In this document: in pieces, positions 22,621 through 56,606 of the stretch
How positions within the stretch are numbered: position 1 is the first letter of the stretch
Layout of the letters: each line of letters begins with the position of its first letter
Translations under genes and position numbers: made by a program
Assembly: GCF_900107545.1 (NCBI RefSeq)
Contig: NZ_FNQZ01000008.1
Span: forward strand, 62,001 to 126,000
DNA from: Pseudobutyrivibrio sp. ACV-2
GTDB lineage: Bacteria > Bacillota > Clostridia > Lachnospirales > Lachnospiraceae
Reading direction: 5' to 3'
DNA length: 64,000 bases
Notes under the pieces: model-generated
Database searches by the model: none
What the model was told of the DNA's origin: nothing
The model's input: only the letters and a program-made list of their open reading frames with translations

Positions 22621-22770
22621 ATGAGCCTGTAGCTGTCAAGGCTGTGTGTCACTTTTTGAGGAGTATAGCGATAAAGTGACATCAAATAAATTTGATGTCA
22701 GGAGGCTTTAGCCGACGATAGCGATTTCAAAAAGTGATACACAGACTTGATAGCGTAACAGGCGGACTAG
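22621..22770 (+). ncRNA. Long-hairpin leader element A (class I loop with nested hairpin)
   Basis: Basal helix GCCTGT/ACAGGC (22625-22630, 22758-22763), then AGCTG and TAGCGTA junctions. A 24-nt arm (22636-22659) pairs with 22727-22750 with one mismatch and one G-T pair. The apex starts GAGTATA, as in elements B-D, but holds an extra perfect hairpin TGACATCAAA-TAAA-TTTGATGTCA (22677-22700). It ends GGACTA, 23 nt before the ilvB start. Function unknown. Confidence 0.6.
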
Positions 22771-22792
22771 GAAATGTGAGAAAGGTAAAGAT

Positions 22793-24463
22793 ATGTTATT
22801 AAGTGGTTCAGAGATAATTATAGAGTGTTTAAAAGAACAAGGGGTAGACACTGTATTCGGCTACCCAGGTGGTGCGATTCTTAATCTCTACGATGAGCTT
22901 TACAAGCACAGCGATGAGATTCACCATGTGCTTACCAGCCACGAGCAGGGCGCAGCCCACGCAGCAGATGGCTATGCCCGTTCAACAGGAAAAGTTGGTG
23001 TTTGCTTTGCAACTTCAGGTCCTGGTGCAACTAATCTTGTAACAGGTATCGCCACAGCTCACATGGATTCAGTTCCAATGGTGGCTATCACCTGCAACGT
23101 TACACTTCCTCTTTTAGGAAAGGATTCCTTCCAGGAGATAGATATAGCAGGCATCACAATGCCTATCACAAAGCATAATTTTATTGTTAAGGATGTAAAG
23201 GATTTGGCAGAGACTATCCGTCGCGCTTTTCTTATTGCAAAAAGCGGCAGACCAGGTCCTGTACTTATTGATGTGCCAAAGGATATTACAGCGCCAAACA
23301 ATAAATACGAATACATGCCAATGAAACCAATTCCTACAGGTCGTGTTAAAAAGAGTATCACCGAGGATGCGTTAAATGAGGCTGTAAAGCTTATTAAAAA
23401 GGCTAAAAAGCCTGTGATTTTCGTAGGTGGTGGCGCAGTTCTAGCTAATGCAGCAAAGGATTTAAAGAAATTTGTTGATTTGGTAGATGCACCTGTTTGC
23501 GACACACTTATGGGAAAGGGCGCTTTCAATGGTACAGATGAAAGATACCTTGGGATGCTTGGCATGCATGGCTCAAAGGCTTCAAATCTTTCTGTATCAG
23601 ATTGTGATTTGCTTATAGCAGTTGGTACCAGATTTTCAGACAGAGTGCTTGGCAACCCAGAAAAATTCGCAAGCAATGCCAAGATTCTTCAGTTTGATGT
23701 AGACCCAGCTGAAATCAATAAAAATATCATGACAGACCATGCAGTGGTAGGTGACGTTAAAGAGACACTTTCACGCATCAACAAAATGCTAGATCAGCAA
23801 AGCCACGCTACATGGGTTAAAAATTGTCAAAAGCTTTCTGAAAAATATCCTCTTACAGTTCCAGCAGAGGGACTTTCGGGCCAGTATATTGTGGCAGAAA
23901 CCTATCGCCAGACAAAGGGCGATGCAATCATCACTACAGAGGTGGGACAGCATCAGATGTGGGCTGCACAGTTCTACAAATTTAAAAAGCCACATCAGCT
24001 TCTTACATCAGGTGGACTTGGAACCATGGGTTACGGTCTTGGCGCTGCAATCGGTGCAAAGACAGGAAATCCAGACAAGACAGTCATCAACATCGCAGGA
24101 GATGGTTGCTTTAGAATGAACATGAATGAATTGGCAACAGCGGCGAGAGAAAAGTTGCCAATCATAGAAATAGTTGTCAACAACCACGTGCTTGGTATGG
24201 TTAGACAATGGCAAACAATTTTCTACGGAAAACGCTATTCCGCAACTGTGCTTGATGATGGCGTGGATTATGTCAAGTTGGCTGAGGCAATGGGCGCAAC
24301 AGGAGTAAGGGTTACATCTCAGGACGAGTTTAAATCCGCATTGTCGGAGGCACTTCGATCCGAGAAGCCTGTGCTTATTGACTGTATCATCAATTCAGAT
24401 GACAAAGTATGGCCAATGGTAGCACCGGGAGCACCTATTAATGAGTTTTTCGAGGAGGATTAA
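22793..24463 (+). CDS. ilvB: Acetolactate synthase large subunit
   Basis: Condenses two pyruvates (or pyruvate and 2-oxobutyrate) with thiamine diphosphate, the first common step of branched-chain synthesis. The 556 residues show VFGYPGGAILNLYD, the catalytic Glu in TSHEQGAAHAADGYARSTG, FATSGPGATNLVTG, and the thiamine-binding GDGCFRMNMNEL...VVNNHVLG. The length fits. No regulatory small subunit gene (ilvN) is adjacent. A long-hairpin element sits directly upstream. The stop codon is four nt before the serC start, linking it to serine synthesis. Confidence 0.95.
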   Translation: MLLSGSEIIIECLKEQGVDTVFGYPGGAILNLYDELYKHSDEIHHVLTSHEQGAAHAADGYARSTGKVGVCFATSGPGATNLVTGIATAHMDSVPMVAITCNVTLPLLGKDSFQEIDIAGITMPITKHNFIVKDVKDLAETIRRAFLIAKSGRPGPVLIDVPKDITAPNNKYEYMPMKPIPTGRVKKSITEDALNEAVKLIKKAKKPVIFVGGGAVLANAAKDLKKFVDLVDAPVCDTLMGKGAFNGTDERYLGMLGMHGSKASNLSVSDCDLLIAVGTRFSDRVLGNPEKFASNAKILQFDVDPAEINKNIMTDHAVVGDVKETLSRINKMLDQQSHATWVKNCQKLSEKYPLTVPAEGLSGQYIVAETYRQTKGDAIITTEVGQHQMWAAQFYKFKKPHQLLTSGGLGTMGYGLGAAIGAKTGNPDKTVINIAGDGCFRMNMNELATAAREKLPIIEIVVNNHVLGMVRQWQTIFYGKRYSATVLDDGVDYVKLAEAMGATGVRVTSQDEFKSALSEALRSEKPVLIDCIINSDDKVWPMVAPGAPINEFFEED

Positions 24464-24467
24464 TGAA

Positions 24468-25550
24468 ATGAGCAGAGTTTACAATTTTAGTGCAGGTCCA
24501 GCAGTATTGCCTGAGGAGGTTTTAAGAGAGGCAGCTGATGAGATGCTTGATTATAAGGGCTGTGGTATGTCCGTAATGGAGATGAGCCACCGTTCAAAGG
24601 TATTTGATGAGATTATCAAGGATGCTGAGGCAGATATCAGAACACTTATGAACATCCCTGACAATTACAAGGTACTTTTCCTTCAGGGTGGAGCTTCACA
24701 GCAGTTTGCAGCTATCCCTATGAACCTTATGAAAAATAGAAAAGCTGGTTATATCATCACAGGCCAGTGGGCAAAGAAGGCTTTCCAGGAAGCAAAGATG
24801 TATGGCGAGGCAGTAGAGCTTGCATCTTCAGCAGATGAGACCTTCAGCTATATTCCAGATTGTTCAGACCTTCCTATCACAGATGATATGGATTATGTAT
24901 ATATCTGTGAGAACAATACTATCTACGGCACAAAGTTTAAGACTCTTCCAAATACAAAGGGGAAAGATTTGGTTGCAGACGTTAGCTCATGCTTCCTTTC
25001 TGAGCCAGTTGATGTGACAAAGTACGGCATCATCTATGGTGGTGTTCAGAAGAACGTTGGACCAGCTGGTATGGTTATCGTAATCATCCGTGAGGACCTT
25101 ATCCGTGATGATGTACTTGAAGGCACACCAACAATGCTTAAGTACAAGACTCAGGCAGATAATGACAGCCTTTATAACACACCACCATGCTACGATATCT
25201 ACATCTGTGGCAAGGTATTCAAGTGGCTTCTAAAAAACGGTGGCCTTTCAGCTATGAAGGAGCTCAACGAGAAGAAGGCTAAGATTTTATATGATTACCT
25301 TGATTCTTCAAAGCTTTTCAAGGGTACAGTAAGAAAAGAGGACCGTTCGCTTATGAACGTACCATTTGTTACAGGCAACGAAGAGCTTGATGCTAAATTT
25401 GTTAAAGAGGCAACTGCAGCTGGTTTTGTAAACCTTAAGGGTCACAGAACTGTTGGTGGTATGCGCGCATCTATCTACAACGCAATGCCAATCGAAGGTG
25501 TTGAGAAGCTCGTAGAGTTTATGAAGAAGTTTGAGGAGGAAAATGCATAA
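24468..25550 (+). CDS. serC: Phosphoserine aminotransferase
   Basis: Transfers an amino group from glutamate to 3-phosphohydroxypyruvate; a PLP enzyme. I start at MSRVYNFSAGPAVLPEEV because GAGGAGG lies 9 nt upstream and this is the family's usual N-terminus. 360 residues. The PLP lysine is in YGGVQKNVGPAGM. The C-terminus has GHRTVGGMRASIYNAMP. It lies four nt after ilvB and its stop codon touches the serA start codon, so serC and serA form one unit. Confidence 0.96.
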   Translation: MSRVYNFSAGPAVLPEEVLREAADEMLDYKGCGMSVMEMSHRSKVFDEIIKDAEADIRTLMNIPDNYKVLFLQGGASQQFAAIPMNLMKNRKAGYIITGQWAKKAFQEAKMYGEAVELASSADETFSYIPDCSDLPITDDMDYVYICENNTIYGTKFKTLPNTKGKDLVADVSSCFLSEPVDVTKYGIIYGGVQKNVGPAGMVIVIIREDLIRDDVLEGTPTMLKYKTQADNDSLYNTPPCYDIYICGKVFKWLLKNGGLSAMKELNEKKAKILYDYLDSSKLFKGTVRKEDRSLMNVPFVTGNEELDAKFVKEATAAGFVNLKGHRTVGGMRASIYNAMPIEGVEKLVEFMKKFEEENA

Positions 25551-26714
25551 ATGTTTACTTACAATTGCTTAAATCCAATTTCAGATAAAGGTTTAGTTAA
25601 CTTTTCTACAGACTACAAAAAGGTAGAGACAATCGGTGACGCAGATGCCTGCCTCGTTCGTTCAGCAGCTATGCACGATATGGAGCTTGGTAACAAGCTT
25701 GCATGTATCGCAAGAGCAGGTGCAGGAGTTAACAACATTCCTCTTGATAAATGTGCAGAGGAAGGTATCGTAGTTTTCAACACACCAGGAGCAAATGCAA
25801 ATGGTGTTAAGGAGCTTGTTTTTGCAGGAATGCTTCTTGCATCTCGTGATATCGTAGGAGGTATCAACTGGGTTCTTGAAAATCAGGGAGATGAAAACAT
25901 CGGCAAAACTGCAGAAAAGGCTAAGAAGGCTTTTGCAGGAACTGAAATTGCAGGCAAAAAGCTTGGTGTTATCGGACTTGGAGCCATCGGTGTAAAGGTG
26001 GCAAATGACGCTACACATCTTGGCATGGAAGTACTTGGCTACGACCCATACATTTCTGTAAATGCAGCTTGGAACCTTTCACGCAACGTAAAGCATGTTA
26101 CTAACGTAGAGGATATCTATAAGGAATGTGATTTCATCACTGTTCATGTACCACTTCTTGATGCTACAAAGGGTATGATTAATAAAGAAGCTGTTCAGAT
26201 GATGAAGAAGGGCGTTGTTATCCTTAACTTTGCCCGTGATCTTCTTGTTGATGAAAAGGCTGTAATCGATGGTATCGAAGCAGGCAAGGTTCGTCACTAC
26301 GTTACAGATTTTGCAAATCCTACAACAGCAGGCAAAAAGGGCGTTATCTGCACACCTCACCTTGGTGCGTCTACAGAGGAAGCAGAGGATAACTGTGCAG
26401 TTATGGCTGTAAAGGAAATCATGGATTATATGGAAAATGGAAACATCATCCATTCTGTAAATTATCCTGATTGTGATATGGGTGTATGTACAGCAGAATC
26501 TCGTGTAGCTATCCTTCACAAGAATAAGGCAGGTCTTATTGCAAGCTTTACCACAATCTTATCTAAAGAAAATGTCAACGTAGATGACATGACAAATAAG
26601 AGCCGTGGCGACTATGCATACACACTTCTTGATCTTGGAAGCAAGCTTACTGATGCTGTAGTTGAAGAAATTAAAAATGTAGATGGAGTAATCAAAGTTA
26701 GGGTGGTTAAATAA
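25551..26714 (+). CDS. serA: D-3-phosphoglycerate dehydrogenase
   Basis: Oxidises 3-phosphoglycerate, the first step of serine synthesis. The 387 residues include the NAD-binding GVIGLGAIGVKVANDA at about 137, NFARDLLVDEKAVIDGI (active-site Arg) and the catalytic TPHLGASTEEAEDNC. A short C-terminal ACT domain (about 318-387, VAILHKNKAGLIASFTTIL) suggests serine feedback. The length fits the short Firmicutes type. The ATG follows the serC stop codon directly; its ribosome site GAGGAGG lies within serC. Confidence 0.95.
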   Translation: MFTYNCLNPISDKGLVNFSTDYKKVETIGDADACLVRSAAMHDMELGNKLACIARAGAGVNNIPLDKCAEEGIVVFNTPGANANGVKELVFAGMLLASRDIVGGINWVLENQGDENIGKTAEKAKKAFAGTEIAGKKLGVIGLGAIGVKVANDATHLGMEVLGYDPYISVNAAWNLSRNVKHVTNVEDIYKECDFITVHVPLLDATKGMINKEAVQMMKKGVVILNFARDLLVDEKAVIDGIEAGKVRHYVTDFANPTTAGKKGVICTPHLGASTEEAEDNCAVMAVKEIMDYMENGNIIHSVNYPDCDMGVCTAESRVAILHKNKAGLIASFTTILSKENVNVDDMTNKSRGDYAYTLLDLGSKLTDAVVEEIKNVDGVIKVRVVK

Positions 26715-26715
26715 A

Positions 26716-27951
26716 ATGGCACATGTGATACCATTTAAAGCGATTCGTCCATCAAGAGAAGAGGCTGCTATTATAGCAGCCCTTCCTTATGATGTGTATA
26801 ATCGCAAAGAAGCATACGAGAAGGTAAAAGAGCAGCCAGGTTCATTCCTTGCAATAGACAGGCCTGAGACACAGTTTTCAGAGGATGTGGATATGTACTC
26901 AGATGAGGTTTATTTAAAGGCTGCAGAAATGTTAAATAACTGGATTGAAAAGGGGCGATTCATCCAGGACAATGAAGAATTCTATTACGTGTACGAGCTT
27001 ACTATGGATGGTCGTTCACAAACAGGAATTGTGGCAGCGGCATCCATTGATGACTATGCAAATTCAGTGATTAAAAAGCATGAAAATACCAGAGCAGAAA
27101 AGGAGCAGGATAGAATCCGCCATGTGGATACCTGTAGCGCTCAAACTGGTCCGATTTTCTTAGCCTATAAAGCTGATGAGACAATCACTGGAATTGTCGA
27201 AAAAGCAAAGACCAGAAATCCAATCTATGATTTTACAGCGGAGGATGGAATTAGTCATCGCTGCTGGATTATAGATGATATGATGAGCAGAGCTTTGATA
27301 GCTACTGCTTTTGAAAAAATGGAAAGCATCTATATTGCGGATGGTCACCATCGTGCCGCCAGCGCAGTAAAGGTGGGAATGAAGCGAAGAGAGGAAAATC
27401 CAGGCTACACAGGTCATGAAGATTTCAACTTTTTTTTGTCAGTACTTTTTCCAGATGACGAATTAAAAATCTATGATTACAATCGTGTGGTCAAGGATTT
27501 GAATGGACTTGCACTAGAGGAATTCCTTGAGGAATTAGATAGCATTGTTGATATTATTGAAACCTCAGAAGCTCCAATCAGACCTGCTAAAAAAGGTCAG
27601 TGGGCTATGCTTTTAGACTCCACCTGGTATTTGTGTCAGGTAAAAAGCGAGCTTCTTATAGATGACCCAGTGGAAGGGCTTGATGTATCATTACTTCAAA
27701 ATTTAATTCTTGAGCCTCTTCTTGGAATTGAAGATCCAAAGACAGATGAAAGAATTGATTTTGTCGGAGGTATCAGAGGTCTTGATGAATTAGAACGTAG
27801 ATGCCAGACAGATAGTAAAATAGCCTTTGCTATGTATCCAACCAGCATTGCAGAACTTTTTGCAGTTGCAGATGCAGGACTTTTAATGCCACCAAAGAGC
27901 ACTTGGTTTGAGCCTAAGCTTAGGAGTGGGCTTTTTATACATAAGATATAA
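26716..27951 (+). CDS. DUF1015 family protein
   Basis: A 411-residue protein of a family often found next to serC and serA in Clostridia. The family landmarks are AIRPSREEAAIIAALPYDVY at the N-terminus, NTRAEKEQDRIRHVD and the conserved YIADGHHRAASA at about residue 211. Function is not established; the conserved neighbourhood suggests a link to serine metabolism. Its ATG is two nt after the serA stop codon, so it is in the same transcript. Inverted repeat R5 with a T8 tract follows and could end the transcript. Confidence 0.85.
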   Translation: MAHVIPFKAIRPSREEAAIIAALPYDVYNRKEAYEKVKEQPGSFLAIDRPETQFSEDVDMYSDEVYLKAAEMLNNWIEKGRFIQDNEEFYYVYELTMDGRSQTGIVAAASIDDYANSVIKKHENTRAEKEQDRIRHVDTCSAQTGPIFLAYKADETITGIVEKAKTRNPIYDFTAEDGISHRCWIIDDMMSRALIATAFEKMESIYIADGHHRAASAVKVGMKRREENPGYTGHEDFNFFLSVLFPDDELKIYDYNRVVKDLNGLALEEFLEELDSIVDIIETSEAPIRPAKKGQWAMLLDSTWYLCQVKSELLIDDPVEGLDVSLLQNLILEPLLGIEDPKTDERIDFVGGIRGLDELERRCQTDSKIAFAMYPTSIAELFAVADAGLLMPPKSTWFEPKLRSGLFIHKI

Positions 27952-27973
27952 AATAGAATATACATATAGAGAA

Positions 27974-28080
27974 CACCTCATCCGCCCTTCGGGCACCTTC
28001 CCCTCAAGGGGAAGGCAAAAAAGAAGGCTTCCCCTTGAGGGGAAGCTGTCAGCGCAGCTGACTGATGAGGTGTTTTTTTT
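27974..28080. repeat. Palindromic repeat R5, inverted type II and type I units ending in T8
   Basis: A type II unit on the minus strand (CACCTCATCC, GCCC-ttc-GGGC, CCTTCCCC/GGGGAAGG) is followed by a type I unit on the plus strand (GGCTTCCCC/GGGGAAGC, GTCAGC/GCTGAC, TGATGAGGTG). The outer ends ACACCTCAT/ATGAGGTGT pair, closing the whole 105-nt stretch into one structure followed by eight T. It can therefore act as terminator of the serC-serA-DUF1015 transcript. Confidence 0.8.
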
Positions 28081-28089
28081 GCGCATTTA

Positions 28090-28123
28090 TGCTATACTTA
28101 ATCAGATTGTAAAAAACTGGAGG
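28090..28123 (+). promoter_or_regulatory. Extended -10 promoter and ribosome site of mscS
   Basis: TGCTATACT at 28090-28098 is an extended -10 box; no good -35 is seen because the T8 tract of repeat R5 occupies that place. GGAGG at 28119-28123 lies 8 nt before a TTG codon and no ATG is available, which decides the TTG start. Confidence 0.5.
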
Positions 28124-28131
28124 CAATTATT

Positions 28132-29007
28132 TTGGAACCAATTACAGATACAGTTACAGCGGAAGAGCTAGTTCAAGATATACAAAAAGGAGTGCTTCAA
28201 CGACAGATAGAAGCCATGATTCCAAAATTTTGGAGCTTTTTGTGGTGTATAGTCCTTGCGTTAGTGGTATTTTTCATAGGCACTAAAATCATAAAGGGAA
28301 TAATCAAGCTTTTCCACAAAGCCATGGACCTTCGTGATTTTGATGCAGGCGTAGAGACCTTCTTAGAGTCGGTTATCAGATGGATATGCTATATCATCCT
28401 TTTTACCATTATTTTAGGCTTATTTGGCGTGACTACCACATCCATTTCAGCAGCGGTAGCAGGTCTTGGTGTCACTATTGGTCTTGCCTTACAGGGGGCA
28501 CTTTCAAACTTCGCAGGTGGTATACTCATTCTTCTCATGCACCCATTCAGAGTGGGTGATTACATCATCGAGCATGCCACAGGCCAGGAAGGTGTTGTAG
28601 AAAAGATTAATATCATCTACACCACACTTAAAATGATAGATGGTCGTATGGTTCAGATTCCAAACGGCACACTTTCATCAGCATCTCTCATTAATTGCAC
28701 ATCTGTAACACGCAGAATGTTCAATGAAACAGTTGGCATCAGCTACGATAGCGATATTAAAAAGGCTAAAAAAATTATGCATGAAATCGCTGAAAAGCAG
28801 GACCATCTGATTACATCAGAGCCAATAAAGGTCTTCGTGGCAGAGCTTGCTGACAGCTCAGTACAGATTGGTCTTAGATTTTGGGTTGAGACCGAATACT
28901 ACTGGCAGACAAAATGGGACGTGCTTGAAGAAATCAAAAACAGATTTGACAAGGAACACGTGGAAATCTGCTTTAATCAGCTTGATGTACACATAAAAGA
29001 AAAGTAA
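28132..29007 (+). CDS. Small-conductance mechanosensitive channel, MscS family
   Basis: A 291-residue membrane channel that releases solutes on osmotic downshock. Three hydrophobic segments lie at about 35-55, 80-105 and 108-150. The pore helix and the start of the beta domain are typical: GLGVTIGLALQGALSNFAGG and MHPFRVGDYI. The start is TTG, chosen from the GGAGG 8 nt before it. It has its own extended -10 promoter. The gap to the next gene is 14 nt, so the M16 peptidase gene is probably co-transcribed. Confidence 0.93.
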   Translation: MEPITDTVTAEELVQDIQKGVLQRQIEAMIPKFWSFLWCIVLALVVFFIGTKIIKGIIKLFHKAMDLRDFDAGVETFLESVIRWICYIILFTIILGLFGVTTTSISAAVAGLGVTIGLALQGALSNFAGGILILLMHPFRVGDYIIEHATGQEGVVEKINIIYTTLKMIDGRMVQIPNGTLSSASLINCTSVTRRMFNETVGISYDSDIKKAKKIMHEIAEKQDHLITSEPIKVFVAELADSSVQIGLRFWVETEYYWQTKWDVLEEIKNRFDKEHVEICFNQLDVHIKEK

Positions 29008-29021
29008 TTTAGAGGTTTTTA

Positions 29022-31928: not shown

Positions 31929-31998
31929 ACAAGCGTACTCACACCGAACCTAATTTTTGCCCCAAAACGTACGCAAATAGAACACCTATCAAATTTAA

Positions 31999-32104
31999 AT
32001 GAGCCTGTAGCTGTCAATGATAGCTGCCCATTTTTGAGGAGTATAACAAAGTGATCTCAAAAATGGGCAGGTATCATTGATAGCGTAACAGGCGGACTAA
32101 AGTA
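31999..32104 (+). ncRNA. Long-hairpin leader element B (class I loop)
   Basis: Basal helix GCCTGT/ACAGGC (32003-32008, 32088-32093), junctions AGCTG and TAGCGTA. 25-nt arms (32014-32038 and 32056-32080) pair with one G-G mismatch. The 17-nt apical loop begins GAGTATAAC. The tail is GGACTAAAGTA. It ends about 20 nt before the era start. It is identical to element C except at two positions, both in the 5' arm. Confidence 0.65.
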
Positions 32105-32123
32105 AATCAGAGGAACCAAAAAT

Positions 32124-33032
32124 ATGAGTAATTTTAAATCAGGTTTCGTAACCATAGTTGGTCGCCCAAATGTTGGCAAAAGCACACTGATGAACCATAT
32201 CATCGGTCAGAAAATTGCCATCACAAGCAACAAACCACAAACGACACGAAACCGTATTCAAACTGTATACACAGATGAAGAAGTAGGTCAAATCGTATTT
32301 CTTGATACTCCAGGTATGCATCAGGCTAAAAACAAGCTTGGTGAATACATGATGACTGCTGCCAAAAGCACTATCAATGAAGTTGATTTGATTCTCTGGC
32401 TTATTGAGCCAGATACAAAAGTTGGTGCAGGAGATAAAAAAATCGCAGAGCTGTTATCCACAGCGGAGGCTCCAGTGATTCTTGTTATCAACAAAATTGA
32501 CATGGCAGATGGTGCAAAAGTCGGTGAAACTATTCAGGCTTTCAAGGATTTATGTGAATTTATCGAGGTGGTTCCAGTGTCTGCTCTTAGAGGCGAAGGC
32601 TGTGATGATTTGCTTGCAACCATTTTCAAGCATCTTCCAGAAGGACCAGCTTTCTATGATGAGGAAACAGTCACCAATCAGACCTTAAGAGAAATCACTG
32701 CTGAAATCATCCGTGAGAAATCTCTTCATGCACTTAACGATGAAGTGCCACACGGCATTGCTATCGAAATCGACAGCATGAAGGAACGCCCAGGCAAAAA
32801 GGCAATGTGGGATATAGAGGCCACTATCATCTGCGAAAAGAACAGCCACAAGGGAATTATCATAGGAAAAGGTGGTGCAATGATTAAAAAAATCGGCACC
32901 AATTCCAGATATGAAATTGAAAAGCTCCTTGATGCCAAGGTTAATCTTAAGCTTTTTGTTAAGGTTAAAAAGGATTGGCGAGACAGCGAGTATGAGCTTA
33001 AGAATTTTGGATATAAAAAAGAGGATATTTAA
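32124..33032 (+). CDS. era: GTPase Era
   Basis: A ribosome-assembly GTPase that binds the 3' end of 16S rRNA. The 302 residues have G1 GRPNVGKSTLMN, G3 DTPGMH and G4 NKID, then a C-terminal KH domain with GIIIGKGGAMIKKIG. The length is standard. The era-recO order is conserved in Firmicutes, and recO starts three nt after its stop codon. A long-hairpin element occupies its leader. Confidence 0.97.
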   Translation: MSNFKSGFVTIVGRPNVGKSTLMNHIIGQKIAITSNKPQTTRNRIQTVYTDEEVGQIVFLDTPGMHQAKNKLGEYMMTAAKSTINEVDLILWLIEPDTKVGAGDKKIAELLSTAEAPVILVINKIDMADGAKVGETIQAFKDLCEFIEVVPVSALRGEGCDDLLATIFKHLPEGPAFYDEETVTNQTLREITAEIIREKSLHALNDEVPHGIAIEIDSMKERPGKKAMWDIEATIICEKNSHKGIIIGKGGAMIKKIGTNSRYEIEKLLDAKVNLKLFVKVKKDWRDSEYELKNFGYKKEDI

Positions 33033-33035
33033 TTA

Positions 33036-42341: not shown

Positions 42342-42460
42342 CCGTGTATAAATACGTATAGCACATTTATGAATATATGCGTACATCATAATATTTCATG
42401 AATTACGTAGATTTCATTTATTAATGCAATAGTAAATTATTATATAGCCTACATCCCTAG

Positions 42461-42566
42461 ATGAGCCTGTAGCTGTCAATGATACCTGCTCATTTTTGAG
42501 GAGTATAACAAAGTGATCTCAAAAATGGGCAGGTATCATTGATAGCGTAACAGGCGGACTAAAGTA
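42461..42566 (+). ncRNA. Long-hairpin leader element C (class I loop)
   Basis: Basal helix GCCTGT/ACAGGC (42465-42470, 42550-42555), junctions AGCTG and TAGCGTA. Perfect 25-nt arms (42476-42500, 42518-42542) include one T-G pair. A 17-nt loop begins GAGTATAAC, and the tail is GGACTAAAGTA. Of its two differences from element B, one repairs B's G-G mismatch to C-G and the other replaces C-G by T-G, so pairing is kept. It ends 66 nt before the DUF1385 start. Confidence 0.65.
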
Positions 42567-44459: not shown

Positions 44460-44555
44460 CTTTAGATGCTTGTAAGCTATAAAGTTTATTTGTGAGAGTA
44501 TAGTGAAAACGATGAGCAAATAAATTTTATAGCTTACAAGCTACACAGCCTAAAG
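44460..44555 (+). ncRNA. Long-hairpin leader element D (class I loop, divergent base)
   Basis: 25-nt arms 44468-44492 and 44517-44541 pair throughout with one G-T pair. The 24-nt apical loop holds GAGAGTATAGTG, sharing AGTATA with elements A-C. A short basal helix CTTTAG/CTAAAG (44460-44465, 44550-44555) replaces GCCTGT/ACAGGC, and the GGACTAA tail is missing. It ends 67 nt before prfA. Confidence 0.5.
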
Positions 44556-45815: not shown

Positions 45816-45821
45816 ATTATC

Positions 45822-47885: not shown

Positions 47886-47910
47886 AGTTTTATTGATTAA
47901 CGGTATAGAA

Positions 47911-47938
47911 AAGCAAGGATATACGCCTTGCTTTTTTG
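47911..47938 (+). terminator. Terminator of the two-component operon
   Basis: AAGCAAGG-atatacg-CCTTGCTT followed by T5. Confidence 0.88.
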
Positions 47939-48069
47939 TTTTATCATTTTATTACATAGAATAACTACTAAATGTTCACATCTATAGTGTATTATTAGCC
48001 CATAAAGTGACGTGTTATATTTTCTTGTCTATTCAAAAGCAAGAGACCTATATAGATTGAGAGCTGCTT

Positions 48070-49971: not shown

Positions 49972-50003
49972 TTTGATAATGCAAGTTATCCGTGATTTTT
50001 TAC

Positions 50004-50030
50004 AAGTTGTCCTTCGGGGCAACTTTTTTT
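50004..50030 (+). terminator. Terminator of the EAL gene
   Basis: AAGTTGTCC-TTCG-GGGCAACTT (9 bp, one T-G pair) followed by T5. Confidence 0.92.
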
Positions 50031-50097
50031 ATGTCGTCATGTTAAATTATTCTCATCTTAATAACAGCCGGTCGTATATAGATTTGGCCATTTTTAC

Positions 50098-50194
50098 GAG
50101 CTGGTAGTCTGCAATCAATTGTGTTTCTAAAGCGAAGCATTCCAAGCTGAGTGTAGAAACATCATTGATTGTACTCGTAACCAGCGGATTAGTA
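50098..50194 (+). ncRNA. Long-hairpin leader element E (class II loop)
   Basis: Basal helix GCTGGT/ACCAGC (50100-50105, 50180-50185), equivalent to GCCTGT/ACAGGC of elements A-C but with compensated changes. Junctions AG and CTCGTA. 18-nt arms (50112-50129, 50154-50171) pair with one mismatch and a G-T pair. The 24-nt loop is AAGCGAAGCATT, two C, AAGCTGAGTG. Tail GGATTAG. It ends 54 nt before the GH3 start. Confidence 0.62.
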
Positions 50195-50248
50195 GCTAGC
50201 CAAAGCTAAAACAAAAACGTTCGGCAGGCAAAAAAATGGAGGATATAA

Positions 50249-52609
50249 ATGGACGCTAGAGAAATCATTTCACAGCTTACATTGATGGAGAAGGCCGCCC
50301 TCTTAAGCGGTAAAAACGAGTGGGAATCAAGAGATATACCACGTTTGGGGATTCAGTCTATCACATTTTCTGATGGACCACATGGTTTGCGTCGTCAGGA
50401 AGGAGCCGGTGATCATTTAGGATTAAATGCATCTCTTCCAGCTACCTGTTTTCCTACTGCAGCAACAGTAGCCAACAGCTGGGATCCTAGCATCGGAGAG
50501 GAAATCGGTGCAGCTCTTGGTGAGGAGGCAGTTGCTCAAAATGTAGATGTACTTTTAGGACCAGGTCTTAACATGAAGCGTTCTCCATTATGCGGACGTA
50601 ACTTTGAGTACTTTAGTGAAGATCCAATCCTTGCAGGAAAGATGGCTGCTTCTTATGTAAGAGGTATCCAGAGCAAGCATGTTTATTCATGCCCAAAGCA
50701 TTTTGCGGTCAACTCCCGTGAATATCGCAGAATGGCAATGAATGCTGTTGTTGATGAGAGAACACTTCGTGAAATTTATCTTACAGCTTTCGAGATAGCT
50801 GTTAAGGAGGGTGGCGCAAAGACAATCATGTCTGCCTACAACGAAGTAAATGGCAAATATGCAAATGAAAATGAGCACCTTCTTGTAGATATTTTAAGAA
50901 ATGAGTGGGGCTTTGATGGAATAGTAGTTACTGACTGGGGAGCAAGCAACGACCATGTTGAGGGTGTGAGATGTCAGTCAAACGTTGAAATGCCAAACCC
51001 TGGCCTTGATTCAGCAAGAGAGCTTATCAAGGCCGCTACAGAGGGCGAAGGCAGAATCACAGAAGAGGAAATCGACAGAGCTATCCTTCCTATCATCGAG
51101 GCTGCTATTTACTTCAAGGAAAATGACCATACAAAGGGATTCGATAAAGAAGCTCATCATGCAATCGCAAAGAAGGCTGTTATTAATTCAGCTGTTCTTC
51201 TTAAGAATGATGAGGATATTCTTCCACTTAAGGCAGGCACTACTGTTTGTCTTAGAGGACCATTTGTGGATAAGCCACGTTATCAGGGCTCAGGAAGTTC
51301 ACAAGTTAACTCTACAAAGGTTGAGACAATAAGAGAACAGATTTCAAACTACGATTTAAAGGTAGTAGATGATCCAGAAAAAGCAGATGTTGTTTTATTC
51401 TTCTTTGGATTAGATGAAATCGCTGAAAGCGAAGGCGCAGACAGAATGTCTATGGATGTTCCAGAATATCAGATTAAAGAGCTTGAGAGCCTTACAGTAT
51501 ATAACAAGCACATCATCGGTGTTATGAGTGCTGGTTCATCAGTAAAGATGCCATGGCTTGATAAATTACAGGCACTTCTTCACGGCTACCTTACAGGACA
51601 GGCAGGAGCATCTGCAATGCTTGACCTTCTTACAGGCAAGGAAATTCCAACTGGTAAGCTTTCAGAGTCTTATCCATTTGCTTTTGCAGATTGTTCAGTG
51701 GCTAACTACTCAGACACTGAAAAGAGAAATCTTCAGTACCGCGAGGGACCATTTATCGGATATCGCTACTATGATACAGCAGATGTGGCAGTTCAGTTCC
51801 CATTCGGATTTGGTCTTAGCTATACAACATTTGAGTATTCAAAGCTTTATGTTGGTGAAGAAGGTGTTAAGTTCACCATTAAAAATGTAGGCGATAGAGA
51901 TGGTGCTGAAATTGCACAGCTTTATGTGGGCAAGGAGGAGTCAGGACTTATTCGACCAAAGAAGGAACTTAAGGGCTTCAAGAAGGTATGGATTAAGGCT
52001 GGTGAGTCAGTAGAAATTGAAATTCCATTTGATGATAAAACTTTCCGTTATTTTTCAACTGTATCAAATAAGTGGGAAATTGAAGGCGGTGAGTACCAGA
52101 TTTACATCGGTTCAAATGTTTCTGATATCGAGCTTAAGGGACTTATCACAAAGGCTGGAACAATCGAAGAGCTTCCTTATGATATTGAAACACTTCCTAG
52201 CTACAAGACAGGAAAGGTTAGAAACGTTCACTATGAGGAATTTGAAAAGCTTTATGGCAATCCACTTCCAGAGGAAAAGGTAGGAGAGCTTGATATAAAT
52301 GATGCTCTTTGCCAGATGAAGGATGCCAAGAGTGGTCTGTGCAGACTCGTATACAAGATACTAAAGAGCAAGCTTGATCAGTCTTATGAAAAGGGTGTGC
52401 CAGATTTGAATATCATGTTCATCTACAACATGCCATTTAGAGCAATGAGCAAGATGACAGCCGGTGCCGTATCCCGTGATATGGCCGAGTCAATCGTAAC
52501 AGTAGCAAACGGCCATTTCTTCAAGGGACTTGGAGGCATAATCTCAGGATACTTTAAGAATGCTCGTGAGAATAAAAAATACGAAGAGCGTTTAAGTCAT
52601 AAAGAATAA
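50249..52609 (+). CDS. GH3 beta-glucosidase, cytoplasmic, classical domain order
   Basis: A 786-residue glycosidase releasing glucose (or a related sugar) from beta-linked oligosaccharides. No signal peptide. The N-terminal barrel has FSDGPHGLR, CPKHFAVNSREYRRM and the nucleophile Asp229 in VVTDWGAS. The second domain starts AVLLKNDEDILPL, and a fibronectin-III-like domain holds the usual YPFGFGLSYTTFEYS. About 100 extra C-terminal residues follow (MFIYNMPFRAMSKMTAG), seen in some Clostridia GH3 proteins. GGAGG precedes the ATG. A GtrA-like gene and a second GH3 gene follow. The natural substrate is not evident. Confidence 0.94.
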   Translation: MDAREIISQLTLMEKAALLSGKNEWESRDIPRLGIQSITFSDGPHGLRRQEGAGDHLGLNASLPATCFPTAATVANSWDPSIGEEIGAALGEEAVAQNVDVLLGPGLNMKRSPLCGRNFEYFSEDPILAGKMAASYVRGIQSKHVYSCPKHFAVNSREYRRMAMNAVVDERTLREIYLTAFEIAVKEGGAKTIMSAYNEVNGKYANENEHLLVDILRNEWGFDGIVVTDWGASNDHVEGVRCQSNVEMPNPGLDSARELIKAATEGEGRITEEEIDRAILPIIEAAIYFKENDHTKGFDKEAHHAIAKKAVINSAVLLKNDEDILPLKAGTTVCLRGPFVDKPRYQGSGSSQVNSTKVETIREQISNYDLKVVDDPEKADVVLFFFGLDEIAESEGADRMSMDVPEYQIKELESLTVYNKHIIGVMSAGSSVKMPWLDKLQALLHGYLTGQAGASAMLDLLTGKEIPTGKLSESYPFAFADCSVANYSDTEKRNLQYREGPFIGYRYYDTADVAVQFPFGFGLSYTTFEYSKLYVGEEGVKFTIKNVGDRDGAEIAQLYVGKEESGLIRPKKELKGFKKVWIKAGESVEIEIPFDDKTFRYFSTVSNKWEIEGGEYQIYIGSNVSDIELKGLITKAGTIEELPYDIETLPSYKTGKVRNVHYEEFEKLYGNPLPEEKVGELDINDALCQMKDAKSGLCRLVYKILKSKLDQSYEKGVPDLNIMFIYNMPFRAMSKMTAGAVSRDMAESIVTVANGHFFKGLGGIISGYFKNARENKKYEERLSHKE

Positions 52610-52624
52610 CGAAGGAGACTAGAA

Positions 52625-53176
52625 ATGAATTTTTGGAACAATTTTGCAGATAAACATCCTGCGATAGCCAAGTGGGTTCGTGAAGGCGGTTTATTCGTAG
52701 TGGTAAGTAACTTAATCACAGTATTTAAGTATTTATTACTTACTTTTTTACCAGCAGCCTTTGCATTCTTAGGTGACCGTTCATTTGGCTGGCCAGGAAT
52801 TCCACTTACAATCGCAGGAGAAACATTCCAGTGGAATATTTTAGGATATGATCAGGCTCATGGTGGACTTGCATATTTTACAGCATACATGATAGCTATG
52901 ATTATCGGTGAAGTAATCAACTTCCCAATTCAAAAGCTTGTAGTTTTCCGTAACCACGAAAAACCAGGCAAGCAGATTGCATGGTACATACTTGCATTTA
53001 TCGTAATCACATGCATAGTTAACTCAATCAACTGTATCTGGGTTGCAGTAGCCGGAAAATTCGTTCCAGCCGCTGTCTACAACATAGGAACCACAGTCTT
53101 AAACGGAGGCGTTTCCATGGTGGTCTTCTTCTTCGTAAACAAGATCATCTTCCCAGAAACACCAAAGAATGCATAA
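52625..53176 (+). CDS. GtrA-like membrane protein
   Basis: A 183-residue protein with four membrane helices (about 22-48, 85-103, 112-135, 148-172). The pattern resembles the GtrA family of small flippase-related proteins: GEVINFPIQKLVVFRNHEKPG matches the conserved loop after the second helix. GtrA proteins help move lipid-linked sugars across the membrane, and the linked glycosyltransferase gene at 56636 fits that. AAGGAG precedes the ATG 15 nt after the GH3 gene, so the two are likely one transcript. Confidence 0.75.
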   Translation: MNFWNNFADKHPAIAKWVREGGLFVVVSNLITVFKYLLLTFLPAAFAFLGDRSFGWPGIPLTIAGETFQWNILGYDQAHGGLAYFTAYMIAMIIGEVINFPIQKLVVFRNHEKPGKQIAWYILAFIVITCIVNSINCIWVAVAGKFVPAAVYNIGTTVLNGGVSMVVFFFVNKIIFPETPKNA

Positions 53177-53214
53177 TTCGTTTATAAAAATCACGACTTA
53201 TTAATGCACTTAGA

Positions 53215-53356
53215 GCTTTAGAGGAGCTGGACTGCATAACCTGGGCAAGCGCGAGCAGGAAGGCTCCGTGCCGAATGAGGAGCCACTGCACCGCAATGAG
53301 AGCATGGAAGGTGGCCTGCGGGAGCACGGAGTACTTGGAGTCCAGCGGACTAAAAC
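53215..53356 (+). ncRNA. Long-hairpin leader element F (GC-rich variant)
   Basis: Basal helix GCTGGAC/GTCCAGC (53226-53232, 53340-53346) and tail GGACTAA match the family, but the interior is long and GC-rich. It contains GGCTCC-(GTGCCGAATGA)-GGAGCC (53262-53284) inside GCAGG/CCTGC. CTCCGTGC (53264-53271) can also pair with GCACGGAG (53324-53331), giving a mutually exclusive fold. It ends 53 nt before the second GH3 gene. Confidence 0.5.
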
Positions 53357-53408
53357 TTTGAGATATATTTTTACTATTATGAGGAAATAATAGGAAGGAG
53401 AAGAGAGA

Positions 53409-56333
53409 ATGTTATCAATCAACATTGCGGACGTTATCGCCGTCCTCAAAACAATGATCCCACAGCTGGTAGCTATCGGCGTAGGACTCGTTCTCGCAAT
53501 CATCGTCACAATCGGTGCGATGAAAGCAAAGAAGCCTCTTAAGGGCTTTATCAGAAAGGAAGCATGGATTGCTTTCGCACTTGTAGTAATTATTGCAGCT
53601 AATGCAATTTTACTCGGACCAGTTTACTCAATGGTAAACATGGCAATGGGTGGTGGCACAATTTCAGATGAAGCCATCGACGAGGCAAAGGCACTTTGTA
53701 CAGAAATCGCTGAGGAAGGTATTGTACTTCTTAAGAACGATGACAAAGAGCTTCCACTTGCAGAAGGTTCAAAGGTTAATGTATTTGGTTGGTCTTCAAC
53801 AAATCCTATCTACGGTGGTACAGGTTCAGGTGCACTTTCAGATGCATACCCAACAGTAGACTTCCTTACAGGTCTTACTGATGCAGGCATCGAGTACAAC
53901 CAGGATCTTGTGGATTTCTACAAGGGTTGGAGAGATGCAAGACCTACAGTAGGTATGATGGGACAGGATTGGACAATCCCTGAACCAAAGGTTTCAGAGT
54001 ACTCAGATAAGATTGCAGCTGCAAAGGATTATTCTGATACAGCTATTTTCTTCATCGCACGTTCAGGTGGTGAAGGTGCCGATCTTCCAATGAGCTATGA
54101 TGGCAAGGATACATTCTCTACAGAGGGTATGTTCGGTGCTTCTGGTGTTCGTTACTCTGATCAGGCAGATGATTTAGATGCATCTAAGTCATATCTTGAG
54201 CTTTCAAACAGAGAGCAGGCACTTCTTGATGAAGTTACAGCAAACTTCGATAAGGTTATCGTAGTAGTAAACTCAGCTAACGCTATGGAGCTTGGCTTTG
54301 TAAATGAGTATCCACAGATTAAGTCAGTTCTTTACTGCCCAGGTACAGGCCAGACAGGTTTTGATGGTCTTGGTGAAATCCTCGCAGGTAAGGTTAACCC
54401 TTCAGGTAAGACAGCTGATACATTTGTAGCAGATCTTACAGCAACACCTACATACAACAACTTTGGTGATTTCGATTACACAAACGTTGAAAAATTCGGG
54501 TTTGACAATATGTTTGCAGAGGGTGGCAAGGCTTACCCTACATTTGTAAACTATGTAGAAGGTATCTATGTAGGATACAAGTACTATGAGACAGCATTTG
54601 CAGAAGCAGAAGCTGGCAACATGGAGTTTGATTACGACTCACAGGTTCTTTATCCATTTGGTTATGGACTTTCATATACATCTTTCTCACAGGAGATGGG
54701 TACTATCACAAATGATGGTAAGACAGTATCATTTGACGTAACAGTTACAAATACTGGCGATGTTGCTGGTAAGGACGTTGTAGAAGTTTACTACAACCCA
54801 CCATACACAAACGGTGGTATTGAAAAGTCAGCTGCAAACTTAATCCAGTTCGCAAAGACTTCTATGCTTGAGCCAGGTGCTTCTGAGACAGTTTCTATTT
54901 CATTTGCACTTGAGGATATGGCTTCATATGACACATACGGCGAAGGCTGCTATGTACTTGAAGCTGGTGATTATGAGATTTCTATCAACTCAGATTCACA
55001 CAACAAGATTTCTACAGACACAGTAAATGTTGCATCTACAGTAGTTTACGATGATTCAAACAAGCGTGATTCTGATCAGGTTGCAGCAACAAATCAGTTC
55101 CAGTTTGCAGAGGGTGATTTAACATACCTTTCACGTGCAGATGGATTTGCAAATTATGCAGAAGCAACAGCAGCTCCAACAAGCTATGAGATGTCTGCTG
55201 AGGTTGAGGCTACATACTTCAACGAAACAAACTATGACCCTACAGTTTATAACAATGATGCAGATGAAATGCCTACAACAGAGGCAAAGAATGGTATCGA
55301 GCTTAAGGAACTTAGAGGTTTAGATTACGACGATCCTAAGTGGGATGAACTCCTTGATGAGATGAGTGTTGCTGATATGAATACACTTATCGAGCTTGGT
55401 GGATATGAGACTTCAGCAGTTGAGTCAATCGGTAAGGTTATGACTTATGACTGTGATGGTCCTGCTTCAATCAACAACAACTTTACAGGACAGGGTTCTA
55501 TCGGATTCCCAGCAGCAGTTATGATTGCCTGCACATGGAACAAGGATATTGCTCTTGCATTTGGTCAGTCAATCGGCCGCATGGCAAACGATATGGACGT
55601 ATCAGGATGGTATGCTCCAGCAACAAACACTCACAGATCTGCATTTGCAGGACGTAACTTCGAGTACTACTCAGAGGATGGCGTACTTGCAGGTTGGATG
55701 TGCGCTAACGCTGTAAATGGTGCTAGAGAGTGGGGCGTATACGCATACGTTAAGCACTTTGCTACAAACGATCAGGAAACAAACAGAACAAACTTCCTTT
55801 GCACATGGTTAAATGAGCAGTCAATGCGTGAGATTTATCTCAAGTCATTCGAAATCACATTCAAGAACTCTAACCCAGGTGCAACAATGGTAGCATTCAA
55901 TAACATTGGTACTATTCCAGCAGAAGCTTGCCCAGAGTTACTTAACACTGTACTTCGTGGCGAGTGGGGATTCAGAGGATTTGCTGAAACAGATTACTTT
56001 GGTGGATACGGATATCAGGATTCTGACCGTATGATCAGAAATGGTTGTGACCTTATGCTTGCAACATACTCTACACCACAGTCAACAGTTACAGATCAGA
56101 CATCTGCAACATCAGTTATCGCTATGAGACAGGCATCAAAGAATATTCTTTACACAGTAGTAAACAGCCGTGCATATGATTCAGATATCAGCGCAGGACT
56201 TCCTACATGGCAGAAGCTTCTTTATGCAGCAGATGTACTTCTTGTTGCACTTCTTGCATTCCTTGAGTACAAGGCTGTAAAGTCTTATCTTAAGAAGAGA
56301 AAAGAAATGGAACCAACAGTAGAAGCTGAATAA
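53409..56333 (+). CDS. Membrane-bound GH3 beta-glucosidase with reversed domain order
   Basis: A 974-residue enzyme. Two N-terminal membrane helices (about 14-38, 53-76) precede a GH3 second domain (starts EEGIVLLKNDDKELPL, about 100) and a fibronectin-like domain (LYPFGYGLSYTSFSQ at about 415). The catalytic barrel comes last (about 630-900): YDCDGPASIN, RNFEYYSEDG, VKHFATNDQETNR and nucleophile Asp862 in AETDYFGG. A membrane helix at about 936-956 closes it. The reversed order is documented for Butyrivibrio and Ruminococcus GH3 enzymes. Both ends being in the membrane suggests an outward-facing catalytic body. Element F precedes it. Confidence 0.93.
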   Translation: MLSINIADVIAVLKTMIPQLVAIGVGLVLAIIVTIGAMKAKKPLKGFIRKEAWIAFALVVIIAANAILLGPVYSMVNMAMGGGTISDEAIDEAKALCTEIAEEGIVLLKNDDKELPLAEGSKVNVFGWSSTNPIYGGTGSGALSDAYPTVDFLTGLTDAGIEYNQDLVDFYKGWRDARPTVGMMGQDWTIPEPKVSEYSDKIAAAKDYSDTAIFFIARSGGEGADLPMSYDGKDTFSTEGMFGASGVRYSDQADDLDASKSYLELSNREQALLDEVTANFDKVIVVVNSANAMELGFVNEYPQIKSVLYCPGTGQTGFDGLGEILAGKVNPSGKTADTFVADLTATPTYNNFGDFDYTNVEKFGFDNMFAEGGKAYPTFVNYVEGIYVGYKYYETAFAEAEAGNMEFDYDSQVLYPFGYGLSYTSFSQEMGTITNDGKTVSFDVTVTNTGDVAGKDVVEVYYNPPYTNGGIEKSAANLIQFAKTSMLEPGASETVSISFALEDMASYDTYGEGCYVLEAGDYEISINSDSHNKISTDTVNVASTVVYDDSNKRDSDQVAATNQFQFAEGDLTYLSRADGFANYAEATAAPTSYEMSAEVEATYFNETNYDPTVYNNDADEMPTTEAKNGIELKELRGLDYDDPKWDELLDEMSVADMNTLIELGGYETSAVESIGKVMTYDCDGPASINNNFTGQGSIGFPAAVMIACTWNKDIALAFGQSIGRMANDMDVSGWYAPATNTHRSAFAGRNFEYYSEDGVLAGWMCANAVNGAREWGVYAYVKHFATNDQETNRTNFLCTWLNEQSMREIYLKSFEITFKNSNPGATMVAFNNIGTIPAEACPELLNTVLRGEWGFRGFAETDYFGGYGYQDSDRMIRNGCDLMLATYSTPQSTVTDQTSATSVIAMRQASKNILYTVVNSRAYDSDISAGLPTWQKLLYAADVLLVALLAFLEYKAVKSYLKKRKEMEPTVEAE

Positions 56334-56341
56334 ACAACATG

Positions 56342-56366
56342 AGGGGCTCGCAAGAGCCCCTTTTTT
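56342..56366 (+). terminator. Terminator of the second GH3 gene
   Basis: AGGGGCTC-GCAA-GAGCCCCT then T5. Confidence 0.93.
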
Positions 56367-56411
56367 AAAAAGTCGATTATTGAATAAAAATATAGCATTT
56401 GCTAAAATAAA

Positions 56412-56502
56412 TTAGTTTATAGATAACAATACTTGATATCACTAAAGCGAAGCATTTCAGGTGAATGTTAGTGACATCAATTATTCTTATCAATAAAAAC
56501 TT
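56412..56502 (+). repeat. Long-hairpin element G1, decayed class II copy
   Basis: 22-nt arms (56423-56444, 56469-56490) pair with three mismatches. The loop AAGCGAAGCATTTC...GGTGAATGT is a mutated class II loop. The basal AGTTT/AAACT survives, but the CGTAAC junction and GGACTAA tail are gone. It sits in tandem just upstream of the intact copy G2. Confidence 0.55.
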
Positions 56503-56507
56503 TAGAT

Positions 56508-56606
56508 GAGGTTTGTAGATAACAATGTTTGATATTACTAAAGCGAAGCATTTTAAGCTGAGTGTAGTAATATCAAGCATTGTTATCGTAACAAACCGGA
56601 CTAAGA
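56508..56606 (+). ncRNA. Long-hairpin leader element G2 (class II loop)
   Basis: Basal helix GGTTTGT/ACAAACC (56510-56516, 56591-56597). Junctions AG and CGTA. Perfect 22-bp arms with one T-G pair (56519-56540, 56565-56586). The 24-nt loop AAGCGAAGCATT, two T, AAGCTGAGTG differs from element E only in the two pyrimidines. Tail GGACTAAG. It ends 30 nt before the glycosyltransferase start. Confidence 0.65.

What the first reader, a model, noticed from the sequence alone, without database searches (positions are those of the whole stretch)
22621..56606. A dispersed family of long-hairpin leader elements with covarying helices
At least seven intergenic elements (22621, 31999, 42461, 44460, 50098, 53215, 56508) share one architecture: a 6-7 bp basal helix, an AG... 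/ ...CGTA internal junction, an arm of 18-25 bp, a conserved apical loop, and a GGACTAA tail (missing in 44460, GGATTAG in 50098). The basal helix is GCCTGT/ACAGGC, GCTGGT/ACCAGC, GGTTTGT/ACAAACC or GCTGGAC/GTCCAGC: both strands change together. The long arms differ completely in sequence between groups yet remain complementary. This is direct evidence for selection on structure. All intact copies lie 18-68 nt before a start codon and point the same way as the gene. Downstream genes (ilvB, era, DUF1385, prfA, two GH3, GT2) share no pathway, which argues against a simple metabolite riboswitch. Processing sites, RNA-stability modules or a hairpin-type mobile element are candidates. I do not recognise the family.
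Basis: partly seen in the sequence, partly recalled or inferred. Interest (0 to 1): 0.85.

Follow-up and report, generated by a model that had tools for sequence, protein, structure and literature searches.

The report
Genus-wide hairpin RNAs between genes
One genus of gut bacteria, Pseudobutyrivibrio, carries dozens of copies of an apparently undescribed hairpin-shaped RNA element between its genes, each with a different sequence but the same fold, most likely a signal read in the messenger RNA that separates neighbouring genes after transcription.

Summary
The elements are real and their fold is under selection. Five of the seven named sites are canonical (22621, 31999, 42461, 50098, 56508); 44460 is degenerate; 53215 belongs to a second structured family. 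A covariance model gave 72 hits in the own genome, 69 after dropping 3 reverse-strand echoes. It hit 27 of 28 same-genus relatives (genus) and 0 of 321 other-genus genomes. No Rfam family reached its gathering score. In 67 aligned copies 96.3% of pair cells pair (shuffled 64.0%). Between sister species 35 of 45 changed pairs still pair, against 19 of 54 when the changes are relocated.

"Leader" is only half right. Copies between co-directional genes are 140 sense, 18 antisense in three genomes; 0 of 18 divergent but 11 of 19 convergent gaps held one. Upstream flanks show no promoter excess, and U-tracts are rare. I read them as intercistronic or 3'UTR marks that set mRNA processing or stability. 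That part is inferred; no RNA data were available. Turnover is fast (deletion, inversion, exchange with the second family), and a mobile origin remains possible.

The parts
22615..22772 (+).
   Evidence: CM match 74 bits; fold; Pfam TPP_enzyme domains
31993..32102 (+). Family 1 element, AGUAUA-type cap, upstream of era (32124)
   Evidence: CM match 88.5 bits; 103 of 105 positions identical to the 42461 copy while each flank matches 18 of 60
42455..42564 (+). Family 1 element, AGUAUA-type cap, upstream of a DUF1385 gene (42626 or 42632)
   Evidence: CM match 84.4 bits; Pfam
44460..44555 (+). Degenerate relative: 26-bp hairpin with AGUAUA-like cap, outer CTTTAG/CTAAAG complementarity and CACAGCCTAAAG tail, but no basal P2 or A/GUA junction; upstream of prfA (44623)
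   Evidence: fold; no R1 match; similar hairpin at the same site in L281 and a half in L290, by eye, L281 also by CM
50090..50194 (+). Family 1 element, tandem-GA cap, upstream of a GH3 gene (50249)
   Evidence: CM match 73.7 bits
53215..53355 (+). Family 2 element (complex GC-rich structured RNA, core 53234-53349) with a class A tail (GCGGACTAA), upstream of a GH3 gene (53409)
   Evidence: R2 match 124.5 bits; 15 DNA matches in own genome, 16 with R2
56406..56505 (+). Degenerate family 1 copy directly in front of the next one
   Evidence: CM match 31 bits, E 5.9e-4 (converted from contig coordinates)
56501..56605 (+). Family 1 element, tandem-GA cap, upstream of a GT2 gene (56636)
   Evidence: CM match 90.1 bits

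Best explanation
A genus-specific, high-copy structured RNA element of Pseudobutyrivibrio that sits in gaps after a sense gene, usually between two genes of one direction, and acts as post-transcriptional punctuation. As RNA it folds into a long hairpin with a fixed plan: outer UUAG/CUAA pairing (in tail class A), AUGA/GGA loop, 6-7 bp basal helix mostly ending GU/AC, A/GUA internal loop, a stem with CAA/UUG at base pairs 6-8, then a cap (tandem GA, AGUAUA, or the core of a second RNA family). A double-strand-specific factor, most likely RNase III or another dsRNA-binding protein, reads the internal loops and the stem. It then cuts or shields the transcript there, so that upstream and downstream genes get separate mRNA ends and half-lives. 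Shown: fold, covariation, slow change at the motifs, sense orientation, position, genus restriction. Inferred: transcription of the element, the factor, and the effect on mRNA.
For: Pairing 96.3% against 64.0% shuffled and 31-47% slid, 527 double-changed cells against 147. In 25 sister-species pairs: 35 changed base pairs still pair and 10 are broken, against 19.0 and 35.1 when the same substitutions are relocated (0 of 500 as few broken); motif positions changed 6 of 400, other hairpin positions 63 of 1665 (p = 0.02); element divergence 3.8% against 7.8% in the 200 nt before it. Sense against antisense between co-directional genes: 54:6, 42:10, 44:2. Gaps of at least 100 nt holding an element: divergent 0 of 18, convergent 11 of 19, co-directional 39 of 99. 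No excess of promoter-like sites in 195 upstream flanks (33 against 31.4 shuffled) and a T-run within 15 nt after only 19 of 195; the same promoter scan rings in divergent gaps (14 of 24 against 7.7). No shared pathway downstream. Precedent: ERIC in Yersinia is co-transcribed, its orientation matters and it alters upstream mRNA stability (PMC2229807, passages); CREE hairpins bind RNase III (PMC2649163, passages).
Against: No RNA-seq, 5'-end map or protein data. The element is missing at the orthologous site in most species (era 8 of 24 by CM, obg 7 of 29, rrf2 1 of 26, prfA 1 of 28), so none of these genes needs it. Divergence downstream of the element (4.1%) equals that of the element, and positions unpaired in the MFE fold, tails included, changed more (38 of 815) than paired ones (57 of 1714). 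At rrf2 in three relatives a stub follows a promoter-like sequence directly (by eye), so a true 5'-leader position exists too. 44 of 195 copies have an antisense gene next downstream. RNase III is found in nearly all bacteria (recalled), which does not explain why only one genus has the element.
Confidence: 0.5

Rival explanations
1. A non-autonomous mobile repeat (MITE-like) moved by an unidentified enzyme. Insertion preference after sense genes gives the orientation bias, and structure is kept because the mobilising enzyme needs it.
For: 69 dispersed copies, two of them 103/105 identical in unrelated flanks; patchy presence at orthologous sites; tandem and inverted neighbouring copies and one whole-element inversion between sister species; genus restriction.
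Against: No clean empty/filled pair with a target duplication among the 13 alignments and the 11 pairs printed (read by eye; the sets overlap); the changes there look like deletion, tandem duplication, inversion and exchange. Y1 transposase absent from 19 of 29 genus genomes, among them ones with 60 or more copies; other transposase families were not tested. Copies kept in both sister species still hold their pairing. Three exact patterns gave nothing in IMG/VR.
Confidence: 0.27
2. A cis-regulatory leader: a protein or ligand binds the hairpin and controls translation of the downstream gene in one large regulon.
For: 45 of 58 own copies with a sense downstream gene lie within 100 nt of its start; conserved unpaired motifs; in 11 of 13 own family 2 copies scanned (of 16) an SD-like site and open start lie 16-59 nt downstream.
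Against: 25 copies in convergent gaps against 4 in divergent ones, and 44 of 195 with an antisense gene downstream. An SD-like motif lies within 70 nt of only 72 of 195 family 1 copies. Genes share no pathway. Not kept at the same genes between species.
Confidence: 0.13
3. A DNA-level hairpin (for recombination, replication or nucleoid proteins) with no RNA role.
For: Long palindromes; inversion and exchange events.
Against: Strong strand bias with transcription and avoidance of divergent gaps are not expected. G-U pairs are tolerated: 25 one-sided changes still form a standard pair.
Confidence: 0.06
4. Not selected: quasi-palindrome template switching keeps the arms complementary by mutation alone.
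For: Such correction is known in long palindromes (recalled); tail duplications suggest template switching here.
Against: It should also close the mismatched A/GUA and GA/GA loops. A pairing-only anchor still finds A/GUA in 24 of 25 sister-species elements, and motif positions change least (6 of 400). Elements diverge less than their upstream flanks.
Confidence: 0.04

Closest known systems
ERIC / IRU repeats of enterobacteria
   Different: No ERIC sequence was compared. Here the stem sequence is almost free while internal loops recur, and there are exchangeable caps including a second RNA family
Correia repeat enclosed elements (CREE/NEMIS) of Neisseria
   Same: About 100-155 bp, hairpin-forming, genus-restricted, multi-copy, RNase III-responsive in mRNA (PMC2649163, passages)
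   Different: CREE have IS-like inverted ends with target duplication (same passages); none was seen here, and here arms differ between copies yet pair
REP/REPIN with RAYT transposase
   Same: High-copy extragenic hairpins (recalled)
   Different: Y1 transposase family found in only 10 of 29 genus genomes; strong sense orientation
Rfam structured RNAs (riboswitches, T-box and others)
   Same: Covarying helices with conserved unpaired motifs
   Different: No family reaches its gathering score on the elements; tens of copies per genome beside unrelated genes
Intrinsic terminators
   Same: Strong hairpin after genes
   Different: No regular U-tract: T-run within 15 nt after 19 of 195 copies; a sense gene usually follows

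Membership tests
ERIC/IRU | Sequence homology to the ERIC consensus | not tested
   No ERIC sequence was compared
ERIC/IRU | Co-transcription and orientation-dependent effect on mRNA | not testable with these tools
   Only sense orientation shown
CREE/NEMIS (MITE) | Terminal inverted repeats with target-site duplication | tested here: inconclusive
   None seen by eye in 13 aligned and 11 printed sister-species sites (overlapping sets); species divergence limits the test
CREE/NEMIS (MITE) | RNase III cleavage or binding in mRNA | not testable with these tools
   Long stem compatible; no RNA data
REP/REPIN-RAYT | Partner Y1 (TnpA-REP) transposase in genomes with the repeats | tested here: not met
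   19 of 29 genomes without PF01797, including G008, G012, G013, G019 with 60 or more copies
Riboswitch / T-box | Match to a curated Rfam model | tested here: not met
   a sub-threshold T-box match in L440 lies beside, not on, a family 2 copy
Riboswitch / T-box | Genes of one pathway downstream | tested here: not met
   (7 window genes and 30 of 69 genome-wide contexts)
Intrinsic terminator | GC hairpin followed by U-tract | tested here: not met
   19 of 195 have four or more T within 15 nt
Integron attC site | Core sites and a linked integron integrase | not tested
   Considered only

The most novel reading that the evidence does not exclude
A bacterial counterpart of hairpin 'ruler' processing: a dedicated, genus-specific dsRNA enzyme or binding protein measures the stem between the A/GUA junction and an interchangeable cap, and cuts dozens of operon transcripts at these sites. 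The sequence of the stem is free; only the fold and a few motifs are read. The second RNA family is an alternative cap on the same base.
Probability: 0.18. Interest if true: 0.87.

Novelty: new variant of a known kind. Interest (0 to 1): 0.72.

Why it matters
Two RNA families for which I found no description make up some 83-128 copies per genome in the three genomes examined closely (family 1: 69, 83, 65; family 2: 16, 45, 18). They are confined to one genus and sit beside housekeeping genes. If they punctuate mRNAs, a whole genus manages operon expression through an RNA code that standard annotation does not show. The set also suits a general question: how dispersed repeats become, or stay, functional RNA. 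Sister species show conservation, decay, inversion and exchange at the same sites.

Tried and rejected
RAYT/REPIN origin: Y1 transposase does not track the element. Rfam identity: none at gathering score; the mir-236 and mir-392 scores at 42472 and a RAGATH-7-assoc score at 56600 are below threshold. Intrinsic terminator: no regular U-tract; terminator-like sites in the 120 nt before the copies are few (3 of 195, shuffled 0.25). Leader right after a promoter: no excess of promoter-like sites within 120 nt upstream (control). Phage or virus carriage: three exact patterns gave 0 matches in IMG/VR; a weak test. A leader peptide: in copies with a 6-bp basal helix the ATGAGC..GTAG reads as a three-codon ORF, but the frame is lost in 7-bp copies and in class B tails (by eye); rejected. 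Kink-turn identity of AUGA/GGA: by eye only, unresolved.

Print: searches (open-licence PMC only) listed no paper that describes it. PMC11109978 and PMC8632094: term searches only, no mention of Butyrivibrio, Lachnospiraceae or Roseburia. PMC2649163 and PMC2229807: passages only.

Limits. Gene calls come from a simple ORF picker. CM E-values are rough. Shuffles do not remove relatedness. The pattern searches, the CM and the anchoring reward GTAG, CAA or CGTAAC, so the near-invariance of these motifs among collected copies is partly ascertained; one search is the less biased test. G019/G026 stretches were chosen because they hold elements, so the gap fractions and the retention are biased upward; the comparison between gap types is within one set. 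Of 148 hits, 126 lay in fetched stretches and 75 of these had an orthologous place in the other species' stretches; of 41 on the G019 side, 25 passed the filter (80% identity, 90 aligned, at most 6 gap columns). score only the best candidates per genome, so counts there are lower bounds. Era loci of other genera gave one weak R1 match (L192, 22 bits, E 0.024), read as chance.
Full report
WHAT IS THERE. The window is part of a 3.66 Mb draft genome. Its Era protein is closest to 24 records titled Pseudobutyrivibrio (89-97% identity), then drops to other Lachnospiraceae and Clostridia at 68% or less, so I take the genus to be Pseudobutyrivibrio. Thirteen copies, from the window and from places found by DNA and pattern search, gave an alignment whose invariant columns include GTAG....CAA and TTG....CGTAAC, with 18 of 24 predicted pairs showing a kept change on both sides. 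Part of those copies were found through patterns holding CGTAAC. A covariance model (R1) found 72 matches at E <= 1 in the own genome. Three are reverse-strand echoes of palindromic copies and were dropped, which leaves 69. Five of the seven named sites are among them. 44460 is not: it keeps the cap and the outer complementarity but lacks the basal helix and the junction. 53215 is not either: it belongs to a second family (below).

ANATOMY. From the base up: P1 (UUUAG/CUAAA, in tail class A), an AUGA/GGA loop, P2 of mostly 6 bp (47 of 61 own anchored copies) mostly ending in GU/AC, a 1x3 internal loop A/GUA, the long stem P3, and a cap. At P3 base pairs 6-8 stand CAA/UUG: C, A, A in 60, 60 and 61 of 61 own copies with an anchor that does not reward them (8 of 69 copies could not be anchored), and 62 of 63 in G019 and 53 of 55 in G026 with one that does. 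P3 is 21-22 bp in 32 of 61 own copies and longer with the AGUAUA cap. In G019 and G026 the simple length measure stops at pair 10 in 20 of 63 and 16 of 55 copies. By eye this is a recurrent single-base bulge one turn above the junction (CAAGC-U-...GCUUG). Caps come as tandem-GA type, AGUAUA type (AGUAUAGC GNNA GCGA), or family 2. Tails fall into class A (GCGGACTAA), class B (GCGAGCCACARCCTAA or GCGAGAGA) and others.

SELECTION ON STRUCTURE. On 67 own copies (E <= 1e-6) 96.3% of cells form standard pairs (shuffled 64.0, sd 0.8; slid by 1-3 columns 31-47%); cells changed on both sides 527 (shuffled 147); covariation score 0.816 (shuffled 0.185). All six P2 pairs vary on both sides. Shuffles do not remove relatedness, so I add an independent look at two sister species, G019 and G026. 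Of 41 G019 elements whose neighbourhood was found in fetched G026 stretches, 25 passed the filter (80% identity or more). There the element differs at 95 of 2529 sites (3.8%), the 200 nt before it at 7.8%, the 200 nt after it (mostly coding) at 4.1%. Of 45 changed base pairs 10 are double and still pair, 25 are single and still pair, 10 are broken. Relocating the same substitutions among paired sites gives on average 19.0 kept and 35.1 broken, and 0 of 500 trials broke as few. Positions of GUAG, CAA, UUG and CGUAAC changed at 6 of 400, other positions from P2 to P2' at 63 of 1665 (p = 0.02). Against this, all positions unpaired in the MFE fold, tails included, changed more (38 of 815) than paired ones (57 of 1714): not every loop is constrained. 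Template switching in palindromes could by itself keep arms complementary, but it should also close the A/GUA loop, which an anchor based on pairing alone finds in 24 of 25 G019 elements.

DISTRIBUTION. R1 hits 27 of 28 same-genus relatives and none of 32 others. In a family-wide draw of 299 genomes it hits only the two genus members and none of 297 of other genera. Eight other-genus genomes are in both sets, so the total is 0 of 321. G021 (83% complete) has none and G007 (86%) one.

POSITION. With a simple ORF picker, copies between co-directional genes are sense:antisense 54:6 (G000, 69 copies), 42:10 (G019, 65 copies in fetched stretches) and 44:2 (G026, 61 copies). Convergent gaps hold 5, 7 and 13 copies, divergent ones 4, 0 and 0; a few had a neighbour off the stretch. 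In stretches of 5 kb or more from G019 and G026, 0 of 18 divergent, 11 of 19 convergent and 39 of 99 co-directional gaps of at least 100 nt hold a copy (convergent against divergent p = 1.3e-4). The 120 nt before 195 copies show no excess of promoter-like sites (33 against 31.4 shuffled), whereas the same scan rings in divergent gaps (14 of 24 against 7.7, sd 2.1). T-runs rarely follow (19 of 195) and an SD-like motif lies within 70 nt of 72 of 195. So the typical copy lies inside a transcription unit or in a 3'UTR, after a sense gene. A leader position also occurs: at rrf2 in three relatives a stub follows a promoter-like sequence (by eye), and family 2 often precedes a start codon closely.

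NEIGHBOURS. Downstream genes include era, prfA, a TPP enzyme, DUF1385, two GH3 and a GT2 gene in the window and, genome-wide, fabZ, an rrf2-type regulator, nrdR, obg, typA, der, atpE, purM, a purH-like formyltransferase, pyrF, hydG, dapA, rlmB, trmL, uppP, gpsA and others (30 of the 69 contexts were scanned, 26 had a match). No pathway is shared.

TURNOVER. The same site is occupied in only some species: era 8 of 24 by CM, one of them weak, obg 7 of 29, rrf2 1 of 26, prfA 1 of 28 by CM plus the own degenerate copy. Some losses leave stubs in which P2 is kept and P3 is gone (L142, L250, L409). Other events, read by eye: two tandem copies against one (G019 C16), whole-element inversion with short inverted repeats at its ends (G019 C88 against L405), 3'-tail duplication (C71) and strongly diverged or replaced arms (L369). 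No clean insertion with a target duplication was seen. Two own copies are 103 of 105 identical in unrelated flanks, which shows copying or conversion. Y1 transposases do not track the element.

SECOND FAMILY. The core of 53215 recurs 15 times in the own genome by DNA search and 16 times with a model built from 15 copies of several genomes (R2). It is found in 26 of 28 same-genus relatives and 0 of 32 others (G021 and G025 have none), with up to 45 copies (G019). It has its own covarying helices (9 of 25 pairs with a kept double change) and no Rfam match. In 11 of 13 own copies scanned (of 16) an SD-like site and open start lie 16-59 nt downstream. In L436 and in G026 L389 the family 2 core sits on a family 1 base, complete with the A/GUA junction (by eye). 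At two sites one sister species has family 1 where the other has family 2. The base thus looks like a common platform with exchangeable caps.

MECHANISM. Best supported: a cis-acting RNA mark for processing or protection of mRNA between genes, read by a dsRNA-specific protein. Slowly changing motifs, free arm sequence, sense bias and intercistronic position fit; the factor and the effect are inferred. The closest working precedents are ERIC and CREE. The strongest rival is a mobile repeat with an unknown enzyme, and the two are not exclusive: a mobile origin with later use is possible for such families.

Noticed in passing
L155, L156, L160 upstream of era; also near the place of G019:C40:57170 in G026 L400: Another palindromic repeat (begins CCCTCATCAGTCAGCTGCGCTGACAGC) is inserted just before era in three species; L158 shows the same place without it.
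   Followed up: no
L440:498-695 (minus strand): A partial T-box match (44.4 bits, below gathering, cut by the locus end) lies upstream, on the same strand, of a family 2 copy that precedes a gene whose start looks like valyl-tRNA synthetase by eye.
   Followed up: no
own copies at C27:59381, C34:55519, C25:72235, C43:79838, C38:161046: A short palindrome GGCTAGCC, in some GTGGCTAGCCAC, follows the tail of several copies.
   Followed up: no
own copies C26:32323, C14:38475, C43:26625, C23:12340 and others: A second tail or stub follows some 20-40 nt after many full copies, as if an older element had lost its arm (by eye).
   Followed up: partly
G021 and G007 (unnamed genus members): Genus members with no or one family 1 copy (both drafts 83-86% complete); genes absent there could point to the partner protein.
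   Followed up: no
   Followed up: no
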